A DNA stretch of 41,048 nucleotides from an uncultured Roseiflexus sp. (GTDB taxonomy: Bacteria > Chloroflexota > Chloroflexia > Chloroflexales > Roseiflexaceae). The stretch covers positions 1-41,048 of the forward strand of contig CALGYB010000063.1 of NCBI GenBank assembly GCA_937935075.1, written 5' to 3'. Positions 14,684 to 39,695 of this stretch are shown one piece after another. Below the pieces are notes generated by a model that made no database searches, was not told the origin of the DNA, and was given only the letters and a program-made list of their open reading frames with translations. The position numbers and the translations under genes were made by a program. Position 1 is the stretch's first letter, and each line of letters opens with the position of its first letter.

Positions 14684-14759
14684 TGGAGCGGGAGACGGGA
14701 TTCGAACCCGCGACCTATACCTTGGCAAGGTATCGCTCTACCAACTGAGCCACTCCCGC
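14684..14759 (-). tRNA. tRNA-Gly(GCC)
   Basis: 76 nt including encoded CCA. Acceptor GCGGGAG pairs with CTCCCGC, discriminator T. The D-arm has GGCTCAGTTGGTAGAGC, the anticodon loop CTTGCCAAG gives GCC, and the T-loop TTCGAAT is standard. Cloverleaf fits throughout. Confidence 0.97.
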
Positions 14760-14772
14760 ATCAGCAATCAGG

Positions 14773-14801
14773 ATTATAGCAGATCGAATGAGAAATTGCA
14801 A
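14773..14801 (-). promoter_or_regulatory. Promoter of tRNA-Gly
   Basis: On the minus strand TTGCAA (14801-14796), 17-bp spacer, TATAAT (14778-14773), ending 13 nt before the tRNA 5' end. Confidence 0.8.
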
Positions 14802-14853
14802 ATCGATTTGCAGAATAGCGAAGCGACGAAGCGTTACCAGAGGGAGTAGGGGA

Positions 14854-14988
14854 TCACATCGAACGAAATGCCGCATAGTACGCGCGGCTGATTGCAGTGC
14901 GCAGCGCGGCTTCTTCAGGACCTGGAACGCCAGGATTGCGACTCAGTGCCTCTGCCAGCGTCAGGTAGTCAGCCCACTCGAAGCTCAT
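14854..14988 (-). pseudogene. Truncated HEPN-domain protein
   Basis: 44 codons from an ATG that overlaps the previous stop (ATGA). The start MSFEWADYLTLAEALS and the helix AALRTAISRAYYAAF are the typical N-terminal half of small HEPN proteins that usually run to about 120-150 residues. Here the reading ends at RSM-TGA just after the AYYAAF motif, so the second pair of helices, and any Rx4-6H RNase motif, is missing. The remaining sequence to the tRNA promoter carries no recognisable remnant. It is the last gene of a three-gene set and is almost certainly inactive. Confidence 0.65.
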
Positions 14989-15463
14989 ATGAATTCCAGA
15001 TTGAAATTGAGACGTCCACCTGTCTGCTCCAATTGTGACAGAAACCACCTCTCGTCGAACTGATCAAGCCGTGCTATCGCGTCGTCCGCCGGCAAGGATA
15101 CGCCGATATTGACAAACAGATCTGTTGAGTCGGGGTCCTCTGTTGTTACTCGAGGACAAGCAGAGAAGAAGGGCCAAAGTATCGTTCTATTTGCGCAGGC
15201 GCTTCCAGGAGAAGATCGATCAATGCAGGATGGTTACGCAAGAAATGCACTGTCTCAACCTCGTGACGAATACTGTAGATGTTTCTAATCTGTCTGATCT
15301 TCGTAAGCCGTTCGATCCAGAGTGATCTTGTACCTTCATGACGAAAGGATTGGTCCGGTTTGCTCGTCGCTCGAAGAGCATCGCTTTGCGTACTGCTCTG
15401 AGCATCCCGAAGTCCACGCTCCCATTCTCGCGATCTCGTGGCGCTAGTGAAAGAGGAAAGCAT
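14985..15463 (-). pseudogene. Frameshifted partner protein of the HEPN gene
   Basis: Starts at ATG 15463 (MLSSFTSATRSREW), 14 nt after the upstream gene. It reads 105 codons to VLE-TAA at 15146; one base shifted, translation continues without a break as TTEDPDSTDLFVNIGVSL to LNFNLEFI-TGA at 14985. Adding one G before TAACAACAG would restore a protein of about 159 residues with VTTEDPD at the join. From memory, small proteins with a 'HP.LI.LLLEA...YF' core and a '...F.LEF' end are commonly encoded directly before an 'MSF(D/E)W...YL' HEPN protein, for example in cyanobacteria, in a toxin-antitoxin-like pair. The frameshift could be genuine or a sequencing error. Confidence 0.65.
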
Positions 15464-15477
15464 TGTACGCCTCGTCT

Positions 15478-16260
15478 TTAGGCATTGAAGAGTTCTCGCA
15501 GACGATCAGTGATAGCCGCTTCGAAGGCTTCCCGAATGTGGAAATGAGCGCTATCGATCCAATCGAATGCCTTTTCCAGCGATACTGCTTCTGGTTGTGC
15601 CAGAAGGTAGTCCAGATCGAGTAGAACGTTCGTTTGATTGAACACAACCGGCTCAGCAGTCGTCAGTTGCAGACGCAGAAAATCACGTCCCTCGGCATAG
15701 GAACTCTGTATCCCCGGTATGAAATCAGTAACGTTTTGCGGTAAACCGGGACCAACGAACGGTCTGAAGTTGAGATAATTCTCCAACATTACCGGACAAT
15801 CATGCACAATAATTCGATTAATATACCGCAATCCAATGCGGCGCAAGCCTTTTGGTCGCGCAACTTCGTTGTATTGTTCGAAGGCTTCGCGCACAAAGGG
15901 AATGAAACCTTCCCATGTCGGATATGGATCAAGGTGATGAATCGACAACAGATCGGGAGCAAGCTGAACAAAAGCCTTTTCGTCCTCACGAAGGAAGCGC
16001 ATGCGGTCAGTCATCCGAAACTCCTGACGAACCTCGTATTCCTCCACTACCGCCTCGCTTTCCAGGAACTTGAATGCCTGTTTGAGCGGGAATCGGCTGC
16101 GCAGGCGATCATAGACGAGACCGGGAATGGTCAAGTCCCAGGGTTCCGCAGGAATGAATGTGAAAGACCGGTTTTTGTGGTTGTCAGACTGTAACATACG
16201 TGGAGGAACTGAGATTTTTACACATGCTCCACGTTCAAGCCTTTGAGAAGAGAAAATCAC
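15478..16260 (-). CDS. TIGR04255-like family protein
   Basis: Up to 260 residues. EPWDLTIPGLVYDRLRSRFP near the N-terminus, the GLRRIGLRYINRI segment in the middle and the C-terminal FDWIDSAHFHIREAFEAAIT motif match the sporadically distributed TIGR04255 family, whose function is unknown. No membrane segment is seen. The start is uncertain: GTG at 16260 or ATG at 16197, neither with a good ribosome site, and the first 40 residues do not look like the usual family start, so the N-terminus may be altered. It is followed after 14 nt by the frameshifted gene and then the HEPN fragment, so the three probably formed one operon. It is divergent from mutA. Confidence 0.7.
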   Translation of the reverse strand: MIFSSQRLERGACVKISVPPRMLQSDNHKNRSFTFIPAEPWDLTIPGLVYDRLRSRFPLKQAFKFLESEAVVEEYEVRQEFRMTDRMRFLREDEKAFVQLAPDLLSIHHLDPYPTWEGFIPFVREAFEQYNEVARPKGLRRIGLRYINRIIVHDCPVMLENYLNFRPFVGPGLPQNVTDFIPGIQSSYAEGRDFLRLQLTTAEPVVFNQTNVLLDLDYLLAQPEAVSLEKAFDWIDSAHFHIREAFEAAITDRLRELFNA

Positions 16261-16368: not shown

Positions 16369-18531
16369 ATGAGCAATGAGGCGCAGACCACTACGGCTGG
16401 CGATGCAGCAACACAACCGCTATTCGATATGTTCCCTCCCGCTACCTACGAGGAATGGCGTGCAGCAGCGGAAAAAACGCTCAAAGGCGCGCCGTTCGAG
16501 AAGCGACTGATCACCAGAACCTATGAGCAGATCGGTCTTCAGCCGATCTACAACGCCGAAGATAGTGCATCCCTGCCGCACGTCAACTCACTCCCCGGTT
16601 TTGCGCCATTTGTGCGCAGCACCCGGACGCTGGGCTATGTCGTCGGGCGCTGGGAGGTGTGTCAGGAACTGCCGTATCCGACGGCGCGCGAGGTCAATCA
16701 GGCGGCGCGCGACGATCTCCCACGCGGGTTGACGACGCTCAACCTGTCGCTTGATCGGGCGACGCTCCACGGGCTTGACCCGGACGCCGCGCCGGTAGAC
16801 CTGGTCGGCGCAGGCGGCACATCGCTCGCCTGTGCCGATGATGCGGTGACACTGTTCGATGGCGTGGCGCTCGACCGCACACCGCTGCTCGTCATAGCCG
16901 GCGCCAATGCGCTGCCGGTTGCGGCGCTGATTCTGTCCACCGCTGAACGGCATGGCATCGCGCACGATCAGATTCAGGGATGCATCGGCGCTGATCCGCT
17001 TGGCGCGCTGGCAGCCTTCGGGACGTTGCCGCTGTCGCTGGATTGCTGCTACGATCTCATGGCGCGCTGGACGGCATGGGCGCAGACCCACGCACCACGC
17101 CTGCGGACGATAGCCGTAGCGACGAACGGGTATCACAATGGCGGCGCGACGGTAGTCCAGGACCTGGCGTGCGCACTGGCGACCGGAGTGGCATACCTGC
17201 GCGCGATGCAGGAGCGCGGACTTGATGTTGATGTGGTTGCCCCGCGCATGCTGTTTGCGTTCTCAATCGGTTCACAGTTCTTTATGGAAATTGCCCGATT
17301 GCGCGCAGCGCGGATGCTGTGGGCGCGTGTCGTCGAGGCGTTTGGCGGCGGCGAGGAGGCGCAGAAGATGCGCATCCACGGGCGCACATCCGCCTGGACG
17401 AAGGCGCGGTTCGATGCGTACAACAATATGTTGCGCGCCACGGCTGAGGCGATGGCCGGCGTGATGGGCGGCGTCGATAGCCTGCACGTCAGCCACTTCG
17501 ATGAGGCGTGGGGCCTGCCCGACGAGTTTTCGCGCCGGATTGCGCGCAATGTACAGACCATTCTTCAGGAGGAGTGCAATTTTATCCGCCTGATCGATCC
17601 GCCTGGCGGCTCCTGGGCGATTGAGTCGTTGACCGATCAGGTGGCGCAGAAGGCATGGGCGCTCTTCCAGGAGATCGAGCGTCGCGGCGGTATGGCTGCT
17701 GCGCTGATGGACGGCTTCCCGCAATCTGAGATAGCCGCAATCCGCAGCGAGCGCTTCTCCGCGATTGCACAGCGCCGCGAGGTGATCATCGGCGTAAACA
17801 TGTATCCGAACCTGAAGGAGAAACCGCTGACGGTGCGCCCGGTGGATCATGCCGCAGTCCAGGCGGAGCGCACCGCCGATGTGCAGCGCGTGCGCCGGAC
17901 ACGTGACTCGCAGGTCTGTCAGGCGGCGCTCGACGCACTGGCGGCAGCGCAGCCGGATCGCCTGGTGGAACTGACGCTGGCAGCAGTGCGCGCCGGCGCC
18001 ACCCTTGGCGAACTCTCGACGGCGCTGGCGTCGGGCGACGCGGCAGGTCCGACGGTCGAACCGATCCCTGCGCATCGCGCAGCAGAACAGTTCGAAGCGC
18101 TGCGCCTGGCAGCGGATGCGTATGCCGCGCGCACCGGCGCGCGCCCGAAGGTCTTCCTCGCCAATATGGGACCAATTCCGCAGCATAAGGCGCGCGCCGA
18201 TTTCTCAACCGGCTTCTTCGAGGCGGGCGGCTTCGAGGTGATCGGCAACGATGGCTTCGCCACCGTCGAAGAAGCGGCGCAGGCGGCGCTGGCATCGGGA
18301 GCAGGCATCGTCACGATCTGCTCGACCGACGATACATATCCGGAGATTGTGCCACCACTGACAAATCTGATAAAATCGAGTCGTCCAGATATGACAGTCG
18401 TGCTGGCAGGGTATCCTGCCGATCAGGTTGAAGCCCATCGGGCGGCCGGGGTCGATGAGTTTATTCATCTTCGAGCGAACTGTTACGAGACCCTGGTGCG
18501 GTTGCAGCAGTTGAAAGGAGTTGTCGCGTGA
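16369..18531 (+). CDS. mutA: Methylmalonyl-CoA mutase small (beta) subunit
   Basis: 720 residues from ATG 16369, chosen because CGAGGAG lies 8 nt upstream. It has the mutase fold: substrate-barrel-like N-terminal domain ([21 protein letters not shown] start, [24 protein letters not shown] in the core) and a C-terminal cobalamin-type domain. The C-terminal domain has [13 protein letters not shown] where the large subunit has DxHxxG, so the cobalt-binding His motif is lost, as is normal for the non-catalytic subunit. It pairs with MutB to rearrange (R)-methylmalonyl-CoA to succinyl-CoA, here most likely in the 3-hydroxypropionate bi-cycle and in propionate use. Its stop overlaps the mutB GTG by 4 nt (GTGA). 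Confidence 0.95.
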
Positions 18532-22260: not shown

Positions 22261-23007
22261 GTGAGCGAAAGCGTCGAGATGTACCTGGTGATGACCGCAC
22301 TCCTGCGCAGCGCGCCGGATCAGCCGGTGCCGCTGTCGTTGCTGGCGAACAAACTCGGAGTCTCACAGGTTTCTGCCAATGAAATGTGCCATCGGCTGGA
22401 AGAGCGGGGGCTGCTCGCATACCAGCCGTACAAGGGCGTCACCCTCACGCCGGATGGTGAGGAGTGGGCGCAGCGCATCCTCTCGCGTCGCCGCCTTTGG
22501 GTCATCTTCCTGGTCGAGAATCTGGGCATCGATCCAGAGGAAGCCGATATGCTGGCGTGCCAGCTCGAACACATCACCTCGGAGCGTCTGGTTGCAGCGC
22601 TCAAGTCCTTTCTGGAGAGCGATCCCGAAACGCGCACATCCGTCAACCGGGCGCCGCAACCGCTCACTGCGTGCACTGCCGGAATGCGCGGCGTTATTGC
22701 TGCCGTCGATGCCGAACCGGCAGCGGCAGCGTTCCTGGCGCAGCAGGGGGTCGCCCCCGGCGCTGACGCCGGAGTGCTGGCAGTCGGCGGCGATGGCGCA
22801 GTACTGCTGCATGTGAACGATCATCAGGTGGCGCTCGCATCTTCCCTCGCCGGTCGCATTACCCTTGCCGTTGGCTCGGCGACGCACACGGCACGACACG
22901 CCGCATGGCGACGGTGCAGCGCTTTCTGGTCGTGCGTGCGTGGTGAAACCCCTACGTGCCCGATAGACGCCGATGAGTCCGAAGTTGCAACCCCTGGCAG
23001 GAGATAA
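22261..23007 (+). CDS. DtxR/MntR-family metal-dependent transcription regulator
   Basis: 248 residues from GTG, with GGGAGGAGC ending 2-3 nt before it. The winged helix is residues 1-65 (LANKLGVSQVSANEMCHRLEERGLL as the recognition unit). Residues 66-125 form the metal-binding and dimer helices, including EEADMLACQLEHITSERL with the E-x2-D...C-x2-E-x2-H ligand set typical of DtxR proteins. Residues 145-215 are an SH3-like FeoA domain. It should repress iron or manganese uptake genes when metal is plentiful; no transporter gene is next to it in this window. The last 35 residues contain extra Cys and are not typical. Confidence 0.85.
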   Translation: MSESVEMYLVMTALLRSAPDQPVPLSLLANKLGVSQVSANEMCHRLEERGLLAYQPYKGVTLTPDGEEWAQRILSRRRLWVIFLVENLGIDPEEADMLACQLEHITSERLVAALKSFLESDPETRTSVNRAPQPLTACTAGMRGVIAAVDAEPAAAAFLAQQGVAPGADAGVLAVGGDGAVLLHVNDHQVALASSLAGRITLAVGSATHTARHAAWRRCSAFWSCVRGETPTCPIDADESEVATPGRR

Positions 23008-31176: not shown

Positions 31177-31893
31177 ATGATGCTCGAAGGAAAAATTGCT
31201 ATCGTCACCGGAGGCGCCGGAGCGCTCGGCGGCGCTGTCGTTCAGGCGTTGCTCGAAGCCGGTGCGACGGTATGGGTTCCATATGTTGTCGCAGATGACC
31301 TTGACCGCCTGCGACAACGTCTGACCGTGCCGGCCAGTGCGAGGCTGGATGGCGCGCCGCTCGATCTGACCGATGAGACGGCGGTGCAACAGGCGTATGC
31401 TCAGGTCGCCAGCACATATGGCGGCATCGACATTCTGGTGAATATCGCCGGGGGGTTTGCAGGCGGCGAACCGGTGCATCGCACCCCCTGGTCGCTCTGG
31501 CAACAGCAACTGGACATCAATCTCAAGACTGCGGTCATTTCCAGCGCTGCCGGTGTGCCGCATATGCTGGCGCGCGGCGGCGGATCGATCGTCAACGTGA
31601 GCAGCCGCACAGCGACGCAGAGCGCCAGAAACGTAGCGGCATACGGCGCCGCCAAACGTGCGGTGTTGCAACTGACCGAGGCGCTTGCCGCTGAACTGCG
31701 CGACTCCAACATTACCGCCAACGCCATCCTGCCCAGTGTGATCGACACACCGGCTAATCGCGCCGCCGACCCGAACGCCGACCACAGCCGATGGGTTGCG
31801 CCGGAAGCGATTGCGCGCGTCATCCTGTTCCTCGTCGGTCCCGATGCGCGCATCATCAGCGGGGCGGCGATCCCGGTGTATGGCAGGGCGTGA
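31177..31893 (+). CDS. Short-chain dehydrogenase/reductase (SDR)
   Basis: 238 residues from ATG 31177, with AGAGG just upstream. Classical SDR: cofactor motif VTGGAGALGGAVV, NIAGG (NNAG variant), and the complete Ser-Tyr-Lys active site (NVSSRTATQSARNVAAYGAAK, split as Ser then Tyr 13 residues later and Lys). It lacks the Asp variant seen in the SDR at 13430. Substrate unknown; the NADP or NAD preference cannot be fixed. It lies alone between a terminator and the AlbA_2-type gene. Confidence 0.85.
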   Translation: MMLEGKIAIVTGGAGALGGAVVQALLEAGATVWVPYVVADDLDRLRQRLTVPASARLDGAPLDLTDETAVQQAYAQVASTYGGIDILVNIAGGFAGGEPVHRTPWSLWQQQLDINLKTAVISSAAGVPHMLARGGGSIVNVSSRTATQSARNVAAYGAAKRAVLQLTEALAAELRDSNITANAILPSVIDTPANRAADPNADHSRWVAPEAIARVILFLVGPDARIISGAAIPVYGRA

Positions 31894-31928
31894 CGCCTTC
31901 GCATAGCGCGCCAATGCCTGCGGATACG

Positions 31929-31971
31929 ACGGACAGGCACGGATTAAGATACAATATCCATGCCTGTCCGT
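31929..31971. promoter_or_regulatory. Inverted repeat flanking a -10-like box
   Basis: ACGGACAGGCA (31929-31939) and TGCCTGTCCGT (31961-31971) are a perfect 11-bp inverted repeat. TACAAT (31950-31955) lies in the loop. This arrangement, 20 nt before the next gene, could be an operator over a promoter, or a hairpin. Confidence 0.45.
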
Positions 31972-31991
31972 GTCCTGTTCCGGTAATCGCT

Positions 31992-33162
31992 ATGACGCTC
32001 CTGGAATTGCTCGACCGTCTCCATCGCGGCGAACATCTGCACACCGAGTTCAAAGAAGCCGAGGTGCATGCCGACGACATCGCGTCGGATCTGGTGGCGT
32101 TCGCCAATACTGACGGCGGGCAACTCATCTTCGGCGTAACCGACGACGGGCGCATTGTTGGCGTGGCCGACGCTGATCGTCTGGCGCAGCGCGTGGACCA
32201 GACCGCTTACAACAACTGCGAGCCGCTGATCACCGTCGTGCAGGAGACAGTGCACGACGAGGCGGGCCGCGCTGTACTCATTGTCAACGTACCCAAAGGC
32301 GACCAGCGACCCTATCAGACAAAGCAACGAGGTGATTTCTTTATCCGCACCGGTTCAGGTCGTCGGCGCGCTTCGCGCCAGGAGTTGCTGTGCCTGTTTC
32401 AGTCCGCCGAGAGCCTTTACTACGATGAGACGCTCCTGGTGCAGGCGACACTGGCCGATCTGGATGGCAGCGCTATCGAGCGCTTCACGCAGCAGGCATA
32501 TCAGCGTTCGGTGGAGGAGAGCGGCGGTCTTGAGACCCTGTTGCGGAAGTTGCGTCTAGCGCGCGAACATGGTGGGATAATCCGCCCCACGGTGGCAGCC
32601 ATGCTCTTTTTCGGCTACAACCCGCAGCAATTTCTTCCGCAATCGCATCTGGCGGCGGCGCGCGTTCCGGGAACCGATCTCAGCGCGGCGCCCTCAGACG
32701 CCAAGCAGATCGGCGGTCGTTTGCTCGATATTCTGGAAGACGCCAGGCGTTTTCTGAATATTCATCTGACAACGACGCACCGTATCCGCGACCTTGAGCC
32801 GGAAGTCTTCCCCGAACTGCCGCCGGAGGCGCTGCGCGAGTTGCTGGTCAATGCCCTGGCACACCGCGACTACACGATCACTGCACCCGTGCGGGTCTTT
32901 GTTCTTGACAATCGGGTGGAAATCCGCACGCCAGGCGGGTTGCCCAACACCGTCACGATTGACGCCATTCAGATGGGGGGCGGCTCATGTGCTCCGCAAT
33001 CCGACAGTGTACACCCTGTTCAGCCGCTGGGGGCTGGTTACCGGCATTGGCAGCGGCGTGTATCGCGCCATCCGGTTAGTCCGGCAGGCCATTGGTCGAG
33101 AGCCGGACCTGTTCGTTGCCGGGAACGAATTCGTGGTATCCCTTGCGCGACCATCGAGTTAA
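31992..33162 (+). pseudogene. AlbA_2/Schlafen-type putative DNA-binding ATPase, frameshifted
   Basis: The ATG at 31992 begins MTLLELLDRLHRGEHLHTEFKEA, the AlbA_2 (Schlafen-like) domain with DLVAFANTDGGQLIFGVTDDG at about residues 33-53. The C-terminal half has ELPPEALRELLVNALAHRDYT, the ATP-binding C-terminal motif of ATP-dependent DNA-helicase-like RecG-type regulators. The frame breaks in a G-run (atG plus 5 G, 32975-32980): one G more restores AHVLRNPTVYTLFSRWGLVTG to the stop at 33162. The intact protein would be about 389 residues. Without it the reading runs on into unrelated sequence. Either a sequencing slip or recent inactivation. Confidence 0.7.
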
Positions 33163-33164
33163 GA

Positions 33165-33254
33165 GCGTGTCTGAAACAGTCGATTGGGTGGGCGAAGGCA
33201 GTGCCTTCGCCCACCCAAGTGCATCTCATGAATGATGCGAGTGTGCAGACACGC
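33165..33254. repeat. Palindromic mini-element with 35-bp perfect palindrome
   Basis: Outer arms GCGTGTCTG (33165-33173)/CAGACACGC (33246-33254) enclose a perfect palindrome: 17-bp arms at 33184-33200 and 33202-33218 around one G, with core GGTGGGCGAAGGCA. A related element is at 39616-39695. It starts just after the stop of the frameshifted gene. Confidence 0.7.
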
Positions 33255-33278
33255 GCCGGTCGATCCGGGACCCGTCCG

Positions 33279-34142
33279 CTACCGCAGCCGCGCAACGGCC
33301 GTCACGATCAGCAGCGCCACCCACAACCCGATGAGCAACAGTTGCAGGAAGGCGCCATTCAGAAGCGCAATGACGCCGAACCCAAAAAGCGGCAGCGCGC
33401 CAAGGCCCAGACCAACGCCGACCGATGCCTGCATCGCCCTGCCGCGTTTGCGGGTCAACTGCTCCACAATGCGCGCTGTCAACCCACCGGTCAGCGGTCC
33501 TGCCAGCATCGCCAGGAACAACCCCAGAAACGGCACGCCGCCAAGCACAACGACCAGCACTGAACCGATCAGCGCCGCAAAGAACCCGGTGACGCCGCCG
33601 ATCAGCATATGCGACAGGTCTGCCTGATAGTGCGGCGGACGGCGCGCTTTGCGACACTCCGGGCAGAGTTGTCCAACTGGGGTCATTTGTGCGCACGAAC
33701 CGCAGATCGGGCGATTGCACTGCACGCAGCGCAATCCGGTCTCGCGGTCAGGGTGGATATAGCAATAGGCAACCTCGACCGTTGTTGTCGGCGGCTCCGG
33801 GGCAGAGAGCAATGGCGAAGCATCGCCGCTCGCCTGCCGTTCCTGACGGCGATGCGCTGGGGCGATTTGCAGCCCTTCAGCCAGCAACTTCTCGACATAC
33901 GCCAGGCTCGCCGTCGCCTCGGCGTTGGTCGGATCGATCGCCAGGGCGCGTTGCAGGTAATCGCGCTTCTCGGCGAGGATCGGCACAACGCTGCTCAGGC
34001 CAATCCAGGCATCGACATTCTCGCTGTCGAGTTCAGTGGCGCGGCGAAACCGCGAACGCGCCGTGAAGGTGTCGCCTGCCAGCGCAGCGGCGCGCCCTTC
34101 GGCAATCAGCTGCTGCACCTCAGTAGCGGTCGATTCGGTCAT
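33279..34142 (-). CDS. TPR and B-box-type zinc-finger membrane protein
   Basis: 287 residues from ATG 34142 (GGGGAC upstream; an ATG pair at 34166 is also in frame). Residues 4-90 are TPR-like helices (RAAALAGDTFTARSRFRRATEL repeats). Residues 127-163 carry a cysteine and histidine ligand set C-x2-H, C-x2-C, C-x2-C, C-x2-C (Cys127, His130, Cys139, 142, 147, 150, 160, 163), similar to a B-box/zinc-ribbon. Four transmembrane helices follow (about 178-200, 200-222, 238-262, 263-285). The soluble half is cytoplasmic by charge. Such proteins are common in Chloroflexi with no proven function; scaffolding is a guess. Confidence 0.75.
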   Translation of the reverse strand: MTESTATEVQQLIAEGRAAALAGDTFTARSRFRRATELDSENVDAWIGLSSVVPILAEKRDYLQRALAIDPTNAEATASLAYVEKLLAEGLQIAPAHRRQERQASGDASPLLSAPEPPTTTVEVAYCYIHPDRETGLRCVQCNRPICGSCAQMTPVGQLCPECRKARRPPHYQADLSHMLIGGVTGFFAALIGSVLVVVLGGVPFLGLFLAMLAGPLTGGLTARIVEQLTRKRGRAMQASVGVGLGLGALPLFGFGVIALLNGAFLQLLLIGLWVALLIVTAVARLR

Positions 34143-38213: not shown

Positions 38214-38834
38214 ACTATTGCTTCGCTCACTGCCGGATTTGGAAAGAACGAAAACAAACGCGTCCGACGCCTATCGCCAACGGATTATGGTATACAGCGC
38301 TTTCTGGAGAACAGCGCATCAATGGCTATGGAATGAGGGATAAAGACCTCAATGTGCCGCGTTGCATGCCTGGAACATTCAGTGCATTTCACCGGGGTCG
38401 GATTATTGCCGACGCCAGAATATCGGAGTGCTGCTGGCTGGAAGGCATGACCAGTTTTATGTCGGGGTGCGGCGCTCATAGGGACAAGCTTCTTAGATAG
38501 CAGGACCGTCATCGTCTACAAGTCAGACAGCCTTCCTGAAGGAGTTTCCCGCACAGCAGGCGCAGGTTGACGCCTGTTGCAATGTCTGTCGTTCCAATCT
38601 TACCATGACTTAACCAGGCGCCTTCTCGCCTGGACGTTCTCGCGCGGCGGCGCTTCGCCCGTGCTGGCGTCTGAATGCCCTCAAGCGCCGATGCGCCCAA
38701 GGGGAGCGCCCTGGTCCCCAGTCCGCCCGGCGGCTAAAGCCGCAGGCTACGGCTGCCAAGCCCGCCGGCGCGGGCTATACCGAATCAATATCTTAATATT
38801 CATCAGCCTGCGCGAGCGTCCGGCATCCCGACGC
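38214..38834. other. Intergenic with R1 module
   Basis: About 620 nt without a credible gene. The piece 38724-38790 (GTCCGCCCGGCGGCTAAAGC onward, with AAGCCCGCCGGCGCGGGCT) is a fragment of repeat R1 (compare 8105-8168). The remainder before it has no recognised feature. Confidence 0.5.
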
Positions 38835-39615
38835 TCGCGTTCCCCCTCATCCCCCGCCCCCTTCTCCCACCAGGGGCGAAGGGGGCGTCAGAATGCGGCA
38901 GCATCTCGAATCCCCTCATCCCCCCTACCCCCTTCTCCTACCAGGGGCGAAGGGGGCTTTGAAACAAAGCGGCGTCTCGATCCCCCTCATCCCCCTTTCC
39001 CACAAGAGGGGCGAAGGGGGCGTCAGAATGCGGCAGCATCTCGATCCTCCTCATCCCCCGCCCCCTTCTCCCACCAGGGGCGAAGGGGGCGTCAGAATTC
39101 GGCAGCATCTCGATCCCCCTCATCCCCCTACCCCCTTCTCCCACCAGGGGCGAAGGGGGAGGCTGAAGCTCGTTGCTACCGTCAGGCAGAGCAACGACAT
39201 TATGCGCCCTTCTCCCACGAGGGGAGAAGGGGGAGGCTAAAGCCCCACGTTTTCCCTTACCCCGCGCCTGCACGCGGGGAACACGGCGCCCCTCCCCCCC
39301 CACTCCCTCCCCCTTGCCCTCCGCATGCGGGGGTCAGGGCAGGGGTGGGGCAGGGGGTGGGGGAGAACCGCACACGTTCTCTCCCCCCGCCCCCTTCTCC
39401 CGCCAGAGGCAAAGGGGGCGTCAGAACCCGGCGGCGGCCCTGTGTCTGATCCCCCCTCATCCCCTTCGCCACTGCTCCTACCAGGGGCAAAGGGGGCGTT
39501 GGAACGCGGCGGCATCCCGACGCTCGCGTTCCCCTCATCCCCCCACCCCCCTTCTCCCACCAGGGGCGAAGGGGGCGTCAGAATGCGGCAGCGTCCCGGT
39601 ACCCGGTTCCCCCCT
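38835..39615. repeat. Tandem array of nine GC hairpin units
   Basis: Imperfect tandem repeat, unit mostly 65-80 bp. Each unit holds CCCCCTTC, TCCCACCAGGGGC and GAAGGGGG, a near-perfect hairpin of 8 outer plus 4 inner base pairs. Hairpins start at about 38857, 38927, 38989, 39056, 39130, 39204, 39387, 39470 and 39546. Units 1, 3, 4 and 9 share the spacer CGTCAGAATNCGGCAGC. A wider stretch at 39240-39380 has other GC palindromes. Unit spacing is uneven and spacers are conserved, so this is not CRISPR. Confidence 0.8.
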
Positions 39616-39695
39616 AGAGCCTATCCAGGGCGGGCGAAGGCATTGCCTTCGCCTACCCGGACACATGTCACATGGCGAGTTTTCGGATAGGCTCT
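39616..39695. repeat. Palindromic mini-element, 80 nt
   Basis: Perfect 11-bp terminal inverted repeats AGAGCCTATCC (39616-39626) and GGATAGGCTCT (39685-39695). The inner palindrome GGGCGAAGGCA-TTGCCTTCGCC is the same as in the element at 33165-33254. The right arm reaches the stop codon of the glycosyltransferase. Confidence 0.75.

What the first reader, a model, noticed from the sequence alone, without database searches (positions are those of the whole stretch)
14854..16260. Decayed TIGR04255-partner-HEPN cassette next to tRNA-Gly
Three genes on one strand: a TIGR04255-like protein, a small partner 14 nt later, and a HEPN protein starting in an ATGA overlap. Two of the three are broken. The small-protein-plus-HEPN pair is arranged like a toxin-antitoxin module, and TIGR04255 is a sporadic family of unknown function, so the set could be an uncharacterised defence or toxin-type system. 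It is inserted between the tRNA-Gly promoter and mutA.
Basis: partly seen in the sequence, partly recalled or inferred. Interest (0 to 1): 0.65.

Follow-up and report, generated by a model that had tools for sequence, protein, structure and literature searches.

The report
Dead copy of a toxin-type cassette
Next to a glycine tRNA gene lies the broken remains of a three-gene bacterial cassette whose intact relatives, found in many phyla and sometimes inside DNA-restriction operons, look like an uncharacterised RNA-cutting self-defence switch built on a shared first protein with exchangeable effectors.

Summary
The trio is real: TIGR04255 gene, small partner, HEPN gene, all on the minus strand. 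It is a remnant of about 1.38 kb inserted between window 14803 and 16180, upstream of tRNA-Gly. All three genes are broken, not two: TIGR04255 lacks its first ~20 residues, the partner is frameshifted, and the HEPN stops after residue 43, before its whole predicted active site.

Elsewhere the trio is intact. Of 80 loci found with the TIGR04255 profile, 45 carry TIGR04255-partner-HEPN in the same order with tight or overlapping spacing, across many bacterial phyla and some archaea. The HEPN lacks the classical Rx4-6H motif but keeps an invariant His and Arg that align with the active site shown for retron-Kva2 HEPN. In up to seven loci the trio sits at the mod-res junction of a type III restriction operon; related operons mostly lack it. 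In one sub-branch VapC and another partner replace the HEPN pair, with TIGR04255 kept.

Best reading: an uncharacterised three-gene toxin/abortive-infection module with an RNase effector, a matching inhibitor and a constant TIGR04255 component. RNase activity and module logic are inferred; nothing was tested at the bench. The window copy is dead.

The parts
14804..16179 (-). Inserted remnant of a TIGR04255-partner-HEPN cassette
   Evidence: Host DNA is co-linear with L044 and L045 up to 14803 and with L043 and L044 from 16179/16180; L044 has about 27 bp there instead
15478..16164 (-). TIGR04255 family gene, N-terminal ~20 codons lost (surviving ORF runs 15478-16260 into host DNA)
   Evidence: NCBIfam TIGR04255.1 97.4 bits, profile 18-252; homology to L142 starts at 16164
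14985..15463 (-). Small partner gene, frameshifted between 15149 and 15131
   Evidence: Two tblastn pieces in different frames against the L142 partner, joint E 3e-22; frames
14860..14988 (-). HEPN gene, first 43 codons only; starts in an ATGA overlap with the partner
   Evidence: 79% identity to residues 1-43 of the L142 HEPN; family profile 1-44
14773..14802 (-). Promoter-like site of tRNA-Gly, directly beside the left junction
   Evidence: TTGCAA-17-TATAAT, 10 of 12 matches
14684..14759 (-). tRNA-Gly (GCC)
   Evidence: ARAGORN
16369..18531 (+). Methylmalonyl-CoA mutase small-subunit gene (mutA), the right-hand host neighbour
   Evidence: ORF and translation; the flank is conserved in congeneric genomes; gene name from the translation and established knowledge

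Best explanation
The window holds a dead fragment of a mobile three-gene module. In intact form the module most likely works as a toxin-antitoxin or abortive-infection switch. The third gene makes a HEPN RNase that probably forms dimers and cuts host RNA with a His/Arg active site like that of type IX retron HEPN. The small second gene makes its matching inhibitor, made just before it by translational coupling. TIGR04255 is the constant component that helps hold the pair silent and senses the trigger. Inside restriction-modification operons it would serve as a second line of defence, as PrrC does: when phage disables restriction, the RNase is released and stops growth. Shown here: conserved gene order and coupling, conserved active-site residues, exchange of effector with partner, insertion between mod and res, and decay of the window copy. 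Inferred: RNase activity, inhibition, sensing and trigger.
For: 45 of 80 TIGR04255 loci carry the trio in one order. Partner-to-HEPN spacing is typically -4 (ATGA) to +6 nt; more negative values come from taking the first possible start codon. In 48 aligned HEPN sequences R, R, Y and H are invariant, and R..D-Y are missing only in the decayed L087. The HEPN profile matches solved HEPN proteins (9xbd 1.2e-9, retron-Kva2 HEPN 9e-4), and the alignment pairs the family's invariant H and R with Kva2 H64 and R122 and its Y with Y40-42; PMC13405049 reports that H64A, R122A and Y40-42A abolish defence. The trio lies between a type III methylase and a ResIII gene in L080, L089 and L118, with partly visible cases in L085, L111, L081 and L121. 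Of 23 related res loci in Chloroflexota none has the trio and in 14 mod directly precedes res. Type IIG enzymes directly precede the trio in L116 and L126. VapC (PDB match 5.9e-17) and an unrelated partner replace HEPN and its partner in L114 and L120, nested inside a HEPN group with support 100/98. The partner-HEPN pair also occurs without TIGR04255.
Against: No toxicity, inhibition or phage assay exists in the data. The HEPN lacks Rx4-6H, so catalysis rests on alignment to one preprint system. Many intact trios sit among housekeeping genes, for example in a glycolytic operon in L105 and L106. PADLOC hits were also frequent in a small control set, there mostly type III CRISPR genes, so general defence-island enrichment is not shown. 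A sensor role for TIGR04255 has no direct evidence. Partner-HEPN pairs exist without TIGR04255, so it is not always needed.
Confidence: 0.55

Rival explanations
1. TIGR04255 is an enzyme that modifies and silences the HEPN RNase, as MntA does to HepT, for example at the invariant Tyr of R-x3-D-Y; the small partner is an adaptor.
For: The HEPN is of the type otherwise paired with nucleotidyltransferases, and the Tyr is conserved in all intact copies. A structural second look puts phosphagen kinases first (Z 9.1, rmsd 3.7, 176 residues aligned).
Against: Z near 9 may be only a common arrangement; Foldseek put TBP first with low TM-scores. No kinase or nucleotidyltransferase match was found. TIGR04255 also accompanies VapC and other third genes, which would not share the same target.
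Confidence: 0.15
2. The HEPN is not catalytic: the trio is an RNA-binding regulator of neighbouring genes, as proposed for MtlR, and its place in operons is regulatory.
For: No Rx4-6H motif; the trio often lies co-directionally inside operons of many kinds, including glycolytic ones.
Against: An invariant His and Arg at retron-Kva2 active-site positions; replacement by VapC, a known RNase toxin; repeated decay, as expected for conflict genes.
Confidence: 0.15
3. The trio is chiefly an accessory of restriction enzymes, for example a control or assembly factor of mod-res complexes, and not a toxin system.
For: Insertion exactly between mod and res in three complete and up to four partial cases.
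Against: Most trios are not beside R-M genes, and related mod-res operons do without the trio.
Confidence: 0.08
4. For the window itself, independent of how intact copies work: only a neutral pseudogene fragment without present function.
For: All three genes are broken, there is no second copy in the genome, and congeneric genomes lack it.
Against: The TIGR04255 frame is still open for 260 codons and could be expressed; a fragment could retain a partial role such as neutralising an incoming toxin.
Confidence: 0.93

Closest known systems
Type IX retron HEPN effector (retron-Kva2, PDB 36ht; PMC13405049)
   Same: HEPN without Rx4-6H; His, Arg and Tyr active-site positions align with the invariant residues here; tripartite module
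   Different: No reverse transcriptase or ncRNA in the trio; the partners are unrelated to the RT and winged-helix protein
HEPN-T (PF05168) proteins and MNT-HEPN toxin-antitoxin pairs (PMC3710099)
   Same: D in place of the motif His with another conserved His; clustering with R-M operons already noted there in general
   Different: The partner is not a nucleotidyltransferase; the full-text search finds no paper that names TIGR04255
PrrC in the EcoprrI type Ic R-M locus
   Same: A HEPN RNase gene inside an R-M operon, acting as a second line of defence
   Different: PrrC has its own ABC ATPase and sits in a type I system; here a three-gene unit sits in type III and beside type IIG systems
VapBC toxin-antitoxin
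   Same: VapC is the third gene in a branch of the same TIGR04255 clade; the small gene before it would be its inhibitor
   Different: An added TIGR04255 gene, and a HEPN effector in the window type
Toxin-antitoxin-chaperone (TAC) systems
   Same: Three genes with a constant helper beside a toxin and its antitoxin, as a working analogy
   Different: No relation to SecB shown; TIGR04255 stands first in the operon

Membership tests
TIGR04255 family (NCBIfam) | Profile score over the curated cut-off | tested here: met
   97.4 bits against 30 for the window gene
HEPN superfamily (HEPN-T, PF05168-like) | Sequence-profile relation to solved HEPN proteins | tested here: met
   9xbd 1.2e-9, 9xbc 1.5e-8 and retron-Kva2 HEPN 9e-4 for the family profile; direct Pfam PF05168 only 15.8 bits, below its cut-off of 22
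HEPN superfamily (HEPN-T, PF05168-like) | Alternative active site: D in the motif with a conserved His elsewhere | tested here: met
   Intact relatives: H62, R91, D95, Y96 invariant. The window copy ends before these residues
Canonical HEPN RNase | Rx4-6H motif | tested here: not met
   R-x3-D-Y in the intact copies
MNT-HEPN toxin-antitoxin | Nucleotidyltransferase partner gene | tested here: not met
   No nucleotidyltransferase match in partner or TIGR04255 proteins; MNT pairs exist separately as L071 and L075
Type II toxin-antitoxin system | Coupled gene pair in which one protein is toxic and the other neutralises it | not testable with these tools
   Coupled pair shown; toxicity and neutralisation need experiments
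Type IX retron | Reverse transcriptase and ncRNA in the operon | tested here: inconclusive
   No RT among the three trio proteins; neighbour scans list only the 25 commonest families
PrrC-type restriction-linked RNase | Location inside an R-M operon | tested here: met
   Complete mod-trio-res in L080, L089, L118; partial in L081, L085, L111, L121; not in most copies and not in the window
PrrC-type restriction-linked RNase | ABC ATPase domain on the same protein | tested here: not met
   HEPN proteins are single domains of about 118-158 aa
TAC system | SecB-like chaperone | tested here: inconclusive
   SecB not among the listed structural matches of the TIGR04255 model, which does not exclude it

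The most novel reading that the evidence does not exclude
TIGR04255 proteins are the constant hub of a large, undescribed class of three-gene toxin systems, in which one sensor or neutraliser fold (possibly TBP-like or phosphagen-kinase-like) works with exchangeable inhibitor-effector pairs: HEPN, VapC, a second PIN-like type, HNH-like and several unknown third genes. The HEPN branch doubles as a guard of type III and type IIG restriction systems.
Probability: 0.35. Interest if true: 0.8.

Novelty: new variant of a known kind. Interest (0 to 1): 0.6.

Why it matters
TIGR04255 is a sporadic family of unknown function that no paper in the searched library mentions. The comparison gives it a conserved setting, a predicted job and named intact copies to test. 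If right, it adds a modular toxin family with effector exchange and another HEPN case embedded in restriction operons, this time type III. It would also extend the retron-type HEPN active site to a system without a retron.

Tried and rejected
A search of viral contigs with the partner alone found nothing, and a plasmid search with an intact partner found nothing. The Pantoea prophage TIGR04255 locus was first taken for a trio, but its second and third genes are unrelated. An eight-row TIGR04255 profile had no stretch conserved enough to scan with; a four-row one was used, so the 45 of 80 figure is for the trio-like branch and not for all TIGR04255 genes. PDB sequence searches with TIGR04255 gave no match and with the partner no credible one. 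Fold searches gave no confident match for either: TBP and phosphagen kinases for TIGR04255, KH-like and type III secretion ring domains for the partner, all in the range of common arrangements; SecB was not listed. The second PIN-like type and the HNH-like proteins had no credible PDB sequence match, so those labels rest on motifs. Upstream proteins of phage HEPN relatives do not match the partner profile. Sequencing error as the sole cause of decay was rejected because both ends of the cassette are cut at host junctions. General enrichment of PADLOC families near trios was not shown against the control.

Full report
WHAT IS THERE. Between the divergent tRNA-Gly (14684-14759, minus) and the mutA gene (from 16369, plus) lies a minus-strand stretch with a TIGR04255 gene, a small partner gene starting 14 nt later, and a HEPN start overlapping the partner stop as ATGA. 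Two congeneric genomes with the same gene order (L044, L045) run straight from tRNA-Gly to mutA. Host DNA matches end at 14803 on the left and resume at 16180 on the right, where L044 has about 27 bp instead. The left junction touches the -35 hexamer of the tRNA promoter, which is kept. No direct target duplication was seen by eye.

DECAY. Against the closest intact relative, L142 (Chloroflexi), TIGR04255 homology begins at window 16164, so the conserved N-terminal motif (Y-x-N-P-P-I-x-E-A) is missing; the ORF only reaches 16260 because host DNA happens to be open. The partner shifts frame between 15149 and 15131. The HEPN ends at 14860 after 43 of about 126 residues, before the invariant His, Arg, Asp and Tyr. 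So all three genes are broken. The genome has no other TIGR04255 gene, and five congeneric genomes have none.

INTACT RELATIVES. In the class, 16 of 158 genomes have a TIGR04255 gene, and partner plus HEPN follow it in five besides the window, one of them itself decayed. A scan of 84,980 species genomes with a four-row profile of the trio branch kept 80 loci; 45 carry partner and HEPN next to TIGR04255, same strand and order. Several of the rest are cut by contig ends (L090, L108, L158). Hosts by record title include Acidobacteriota, Bacteroidota, Chloroflexota, Nitrospirota, Planctomycetota, Thermodesulfobacteriota, Bacillota, Calditrichota and Methanotrichaceae, most of them metagenome bins, so single placements are unsure. 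A named isolate copy lies on Thermus brockianus plasmid pTB1, near an argonaute, a DNA methylase, VapBC, cas6 and MNT-HEPN genes. The partner-HEPN pair also occurs without TIGR04255 in Chloroflexota and on Gloeothece plasmids.

THE HEPN. Across 48 sequences R, R, Y and H are invariant and R-x3-D-Y is missing only in the decayed L087 copy; there is no Rx4-6H motif. The profile matches solved HEPN proteins, among them the retron-Kva2 effector, and the alignment pairs the invariant His with Kva2 H64, the Arg with R122 and the Tyr with Y40-42. The Kva2 preprint reports that this HEPN too lacks the classical motif and that H64A, R122A and Y40-42A abolish phage defence, with tRNA loss on activation (PMC13405049). 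An earlier survey had predicted the alternative His for the HEPN-T group and noted its clustering with R-M operons (PMC3710099). RNase activity of the present family is therefore a well-founded inference, not a result.

THE OTHER TWO. TIGR04255 gives a confident model (mean pLDDT 91) with a duplicated strand-helix-strands-helix layout. The nearest solved folds are TBP by Foldseek (E 2e-3, low TM) and phosphagen kinases by the second aligner (Z up to 9.1, rmsd 3.7, 176 aligned), neither decisive. The partner has a disordered N-terminus and a confident C-terminal part of three helices plus strand-strand-helix-strand without a clear relative.

RESTRICTION LINK. In L080, L089 and L118 the trio lies between a type III methylase gene and a ResIII gene with gaps of a few bases or overlaps. 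L085 and L111 show the methylase and the start of ResIII before the contig ends; L121 and L081 show ResIII but the upstream gene is off the contig or not identified. Of 23 related res loci in Chloroflexota none has the trio, and in 14 the methylase directly precedes res; a few of the others are cut by contig ends. On the TIGR04255 tree the R-M labels need six changes among HEPN rows, so the link arose more than once or moved. L116 and L126 follow type IIG enzymes. A neighbour scan found R-M genes repeatedly, but the control set from the same genomes also had defence hits, mostly type III CRISPR, so only the specific R-M arrangement is claimed.

EFFECTOR EXCHANGE. HEPN-linked TIGR04255 genes fall nearly together on the tree (49 of 55 rows). 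Inside one HEPN group (support 100/98) L114 and L120 have VapC in place of HEPN and a different second gene; L113 has the same with a cut VapC. More distant TIGR04255 genes are followed by other pairs: a second PIN-like type, an HNH-like protein on two viral contigs, an XRE-type regulator, and several unknown proteins. Second and third genes change together while TIGR04255 stays. This suggests that gene 2 is the effector's own inhibitor and that TIGR04255 is the constant part.

MECHANISM AND LIMITS. The best reading is a toxin or abortive-infection module: HEPN RNase, matching inhibitor, and TIGR04255 as common controller, sometimes stationed inside a restriction operon as a back-up, like PrrC. 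The trigger, the toxicity and the controller role are inferred. The window copy itself is dead DNA.

Noticed in passing
window 31791-33563 (+): An ORF that begins like an AlbA_2/Schlafen-type protein seems to continue in another frame (32794-33162), so this gene is probably frameshifted too.
   Followed up: partly
window 38834-39621: Imperfect direct repeats with spacing of 64-79 bp, core CCCCCTTCTCCCACCAGGGGCGAAGGGGGCGTCAGAA, at least seven copies in two blocks.
   Followed up: no
window 22663-22752 (+): ARAGORN calls a tRNA-Asn inside an ORF (22261-23007); probably a false positive.
   Followed up: no
L105 and L106 (Clostridia bins): The trio lies in what looks like a glycolytic operon; phosphoglycerate kinase and triosephosphate isomerase were among the neighbour matches, so it also inserts into housekeeping operons.
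   Followed up: partly
L089:4941-7997: The type III methylase gene upstream of the trio carries intein-like and DUF559 matches in its middle.
   Followed up: no
L119:7219-10450: Two trios in tandem; the TIGR04255 gene of the second copy is broken.
   Followed up: partly
L087 (Chloroflexus islandicus), L113: Further decayed copies: interrupted TIGR04255 and altered HEPN end in L087, cut VapC in L113.
   Followed up: partly
L219 (Pseudomonas phage PG1), L220 (Klebsiella phage ST405-OXA48phi1.3): HEPN relatives near phage tail genes, each preceded by a 245-266 aa protein that matches neither TIGR04255 nor the partner profile.
   Followed up: partly
L051 (Pantoea sp. Lij88 plasmid): A TIGR04255 gene with two unrelated small genes between lysis and terminase genes of a P22-like prophage.
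   Followed up: partly
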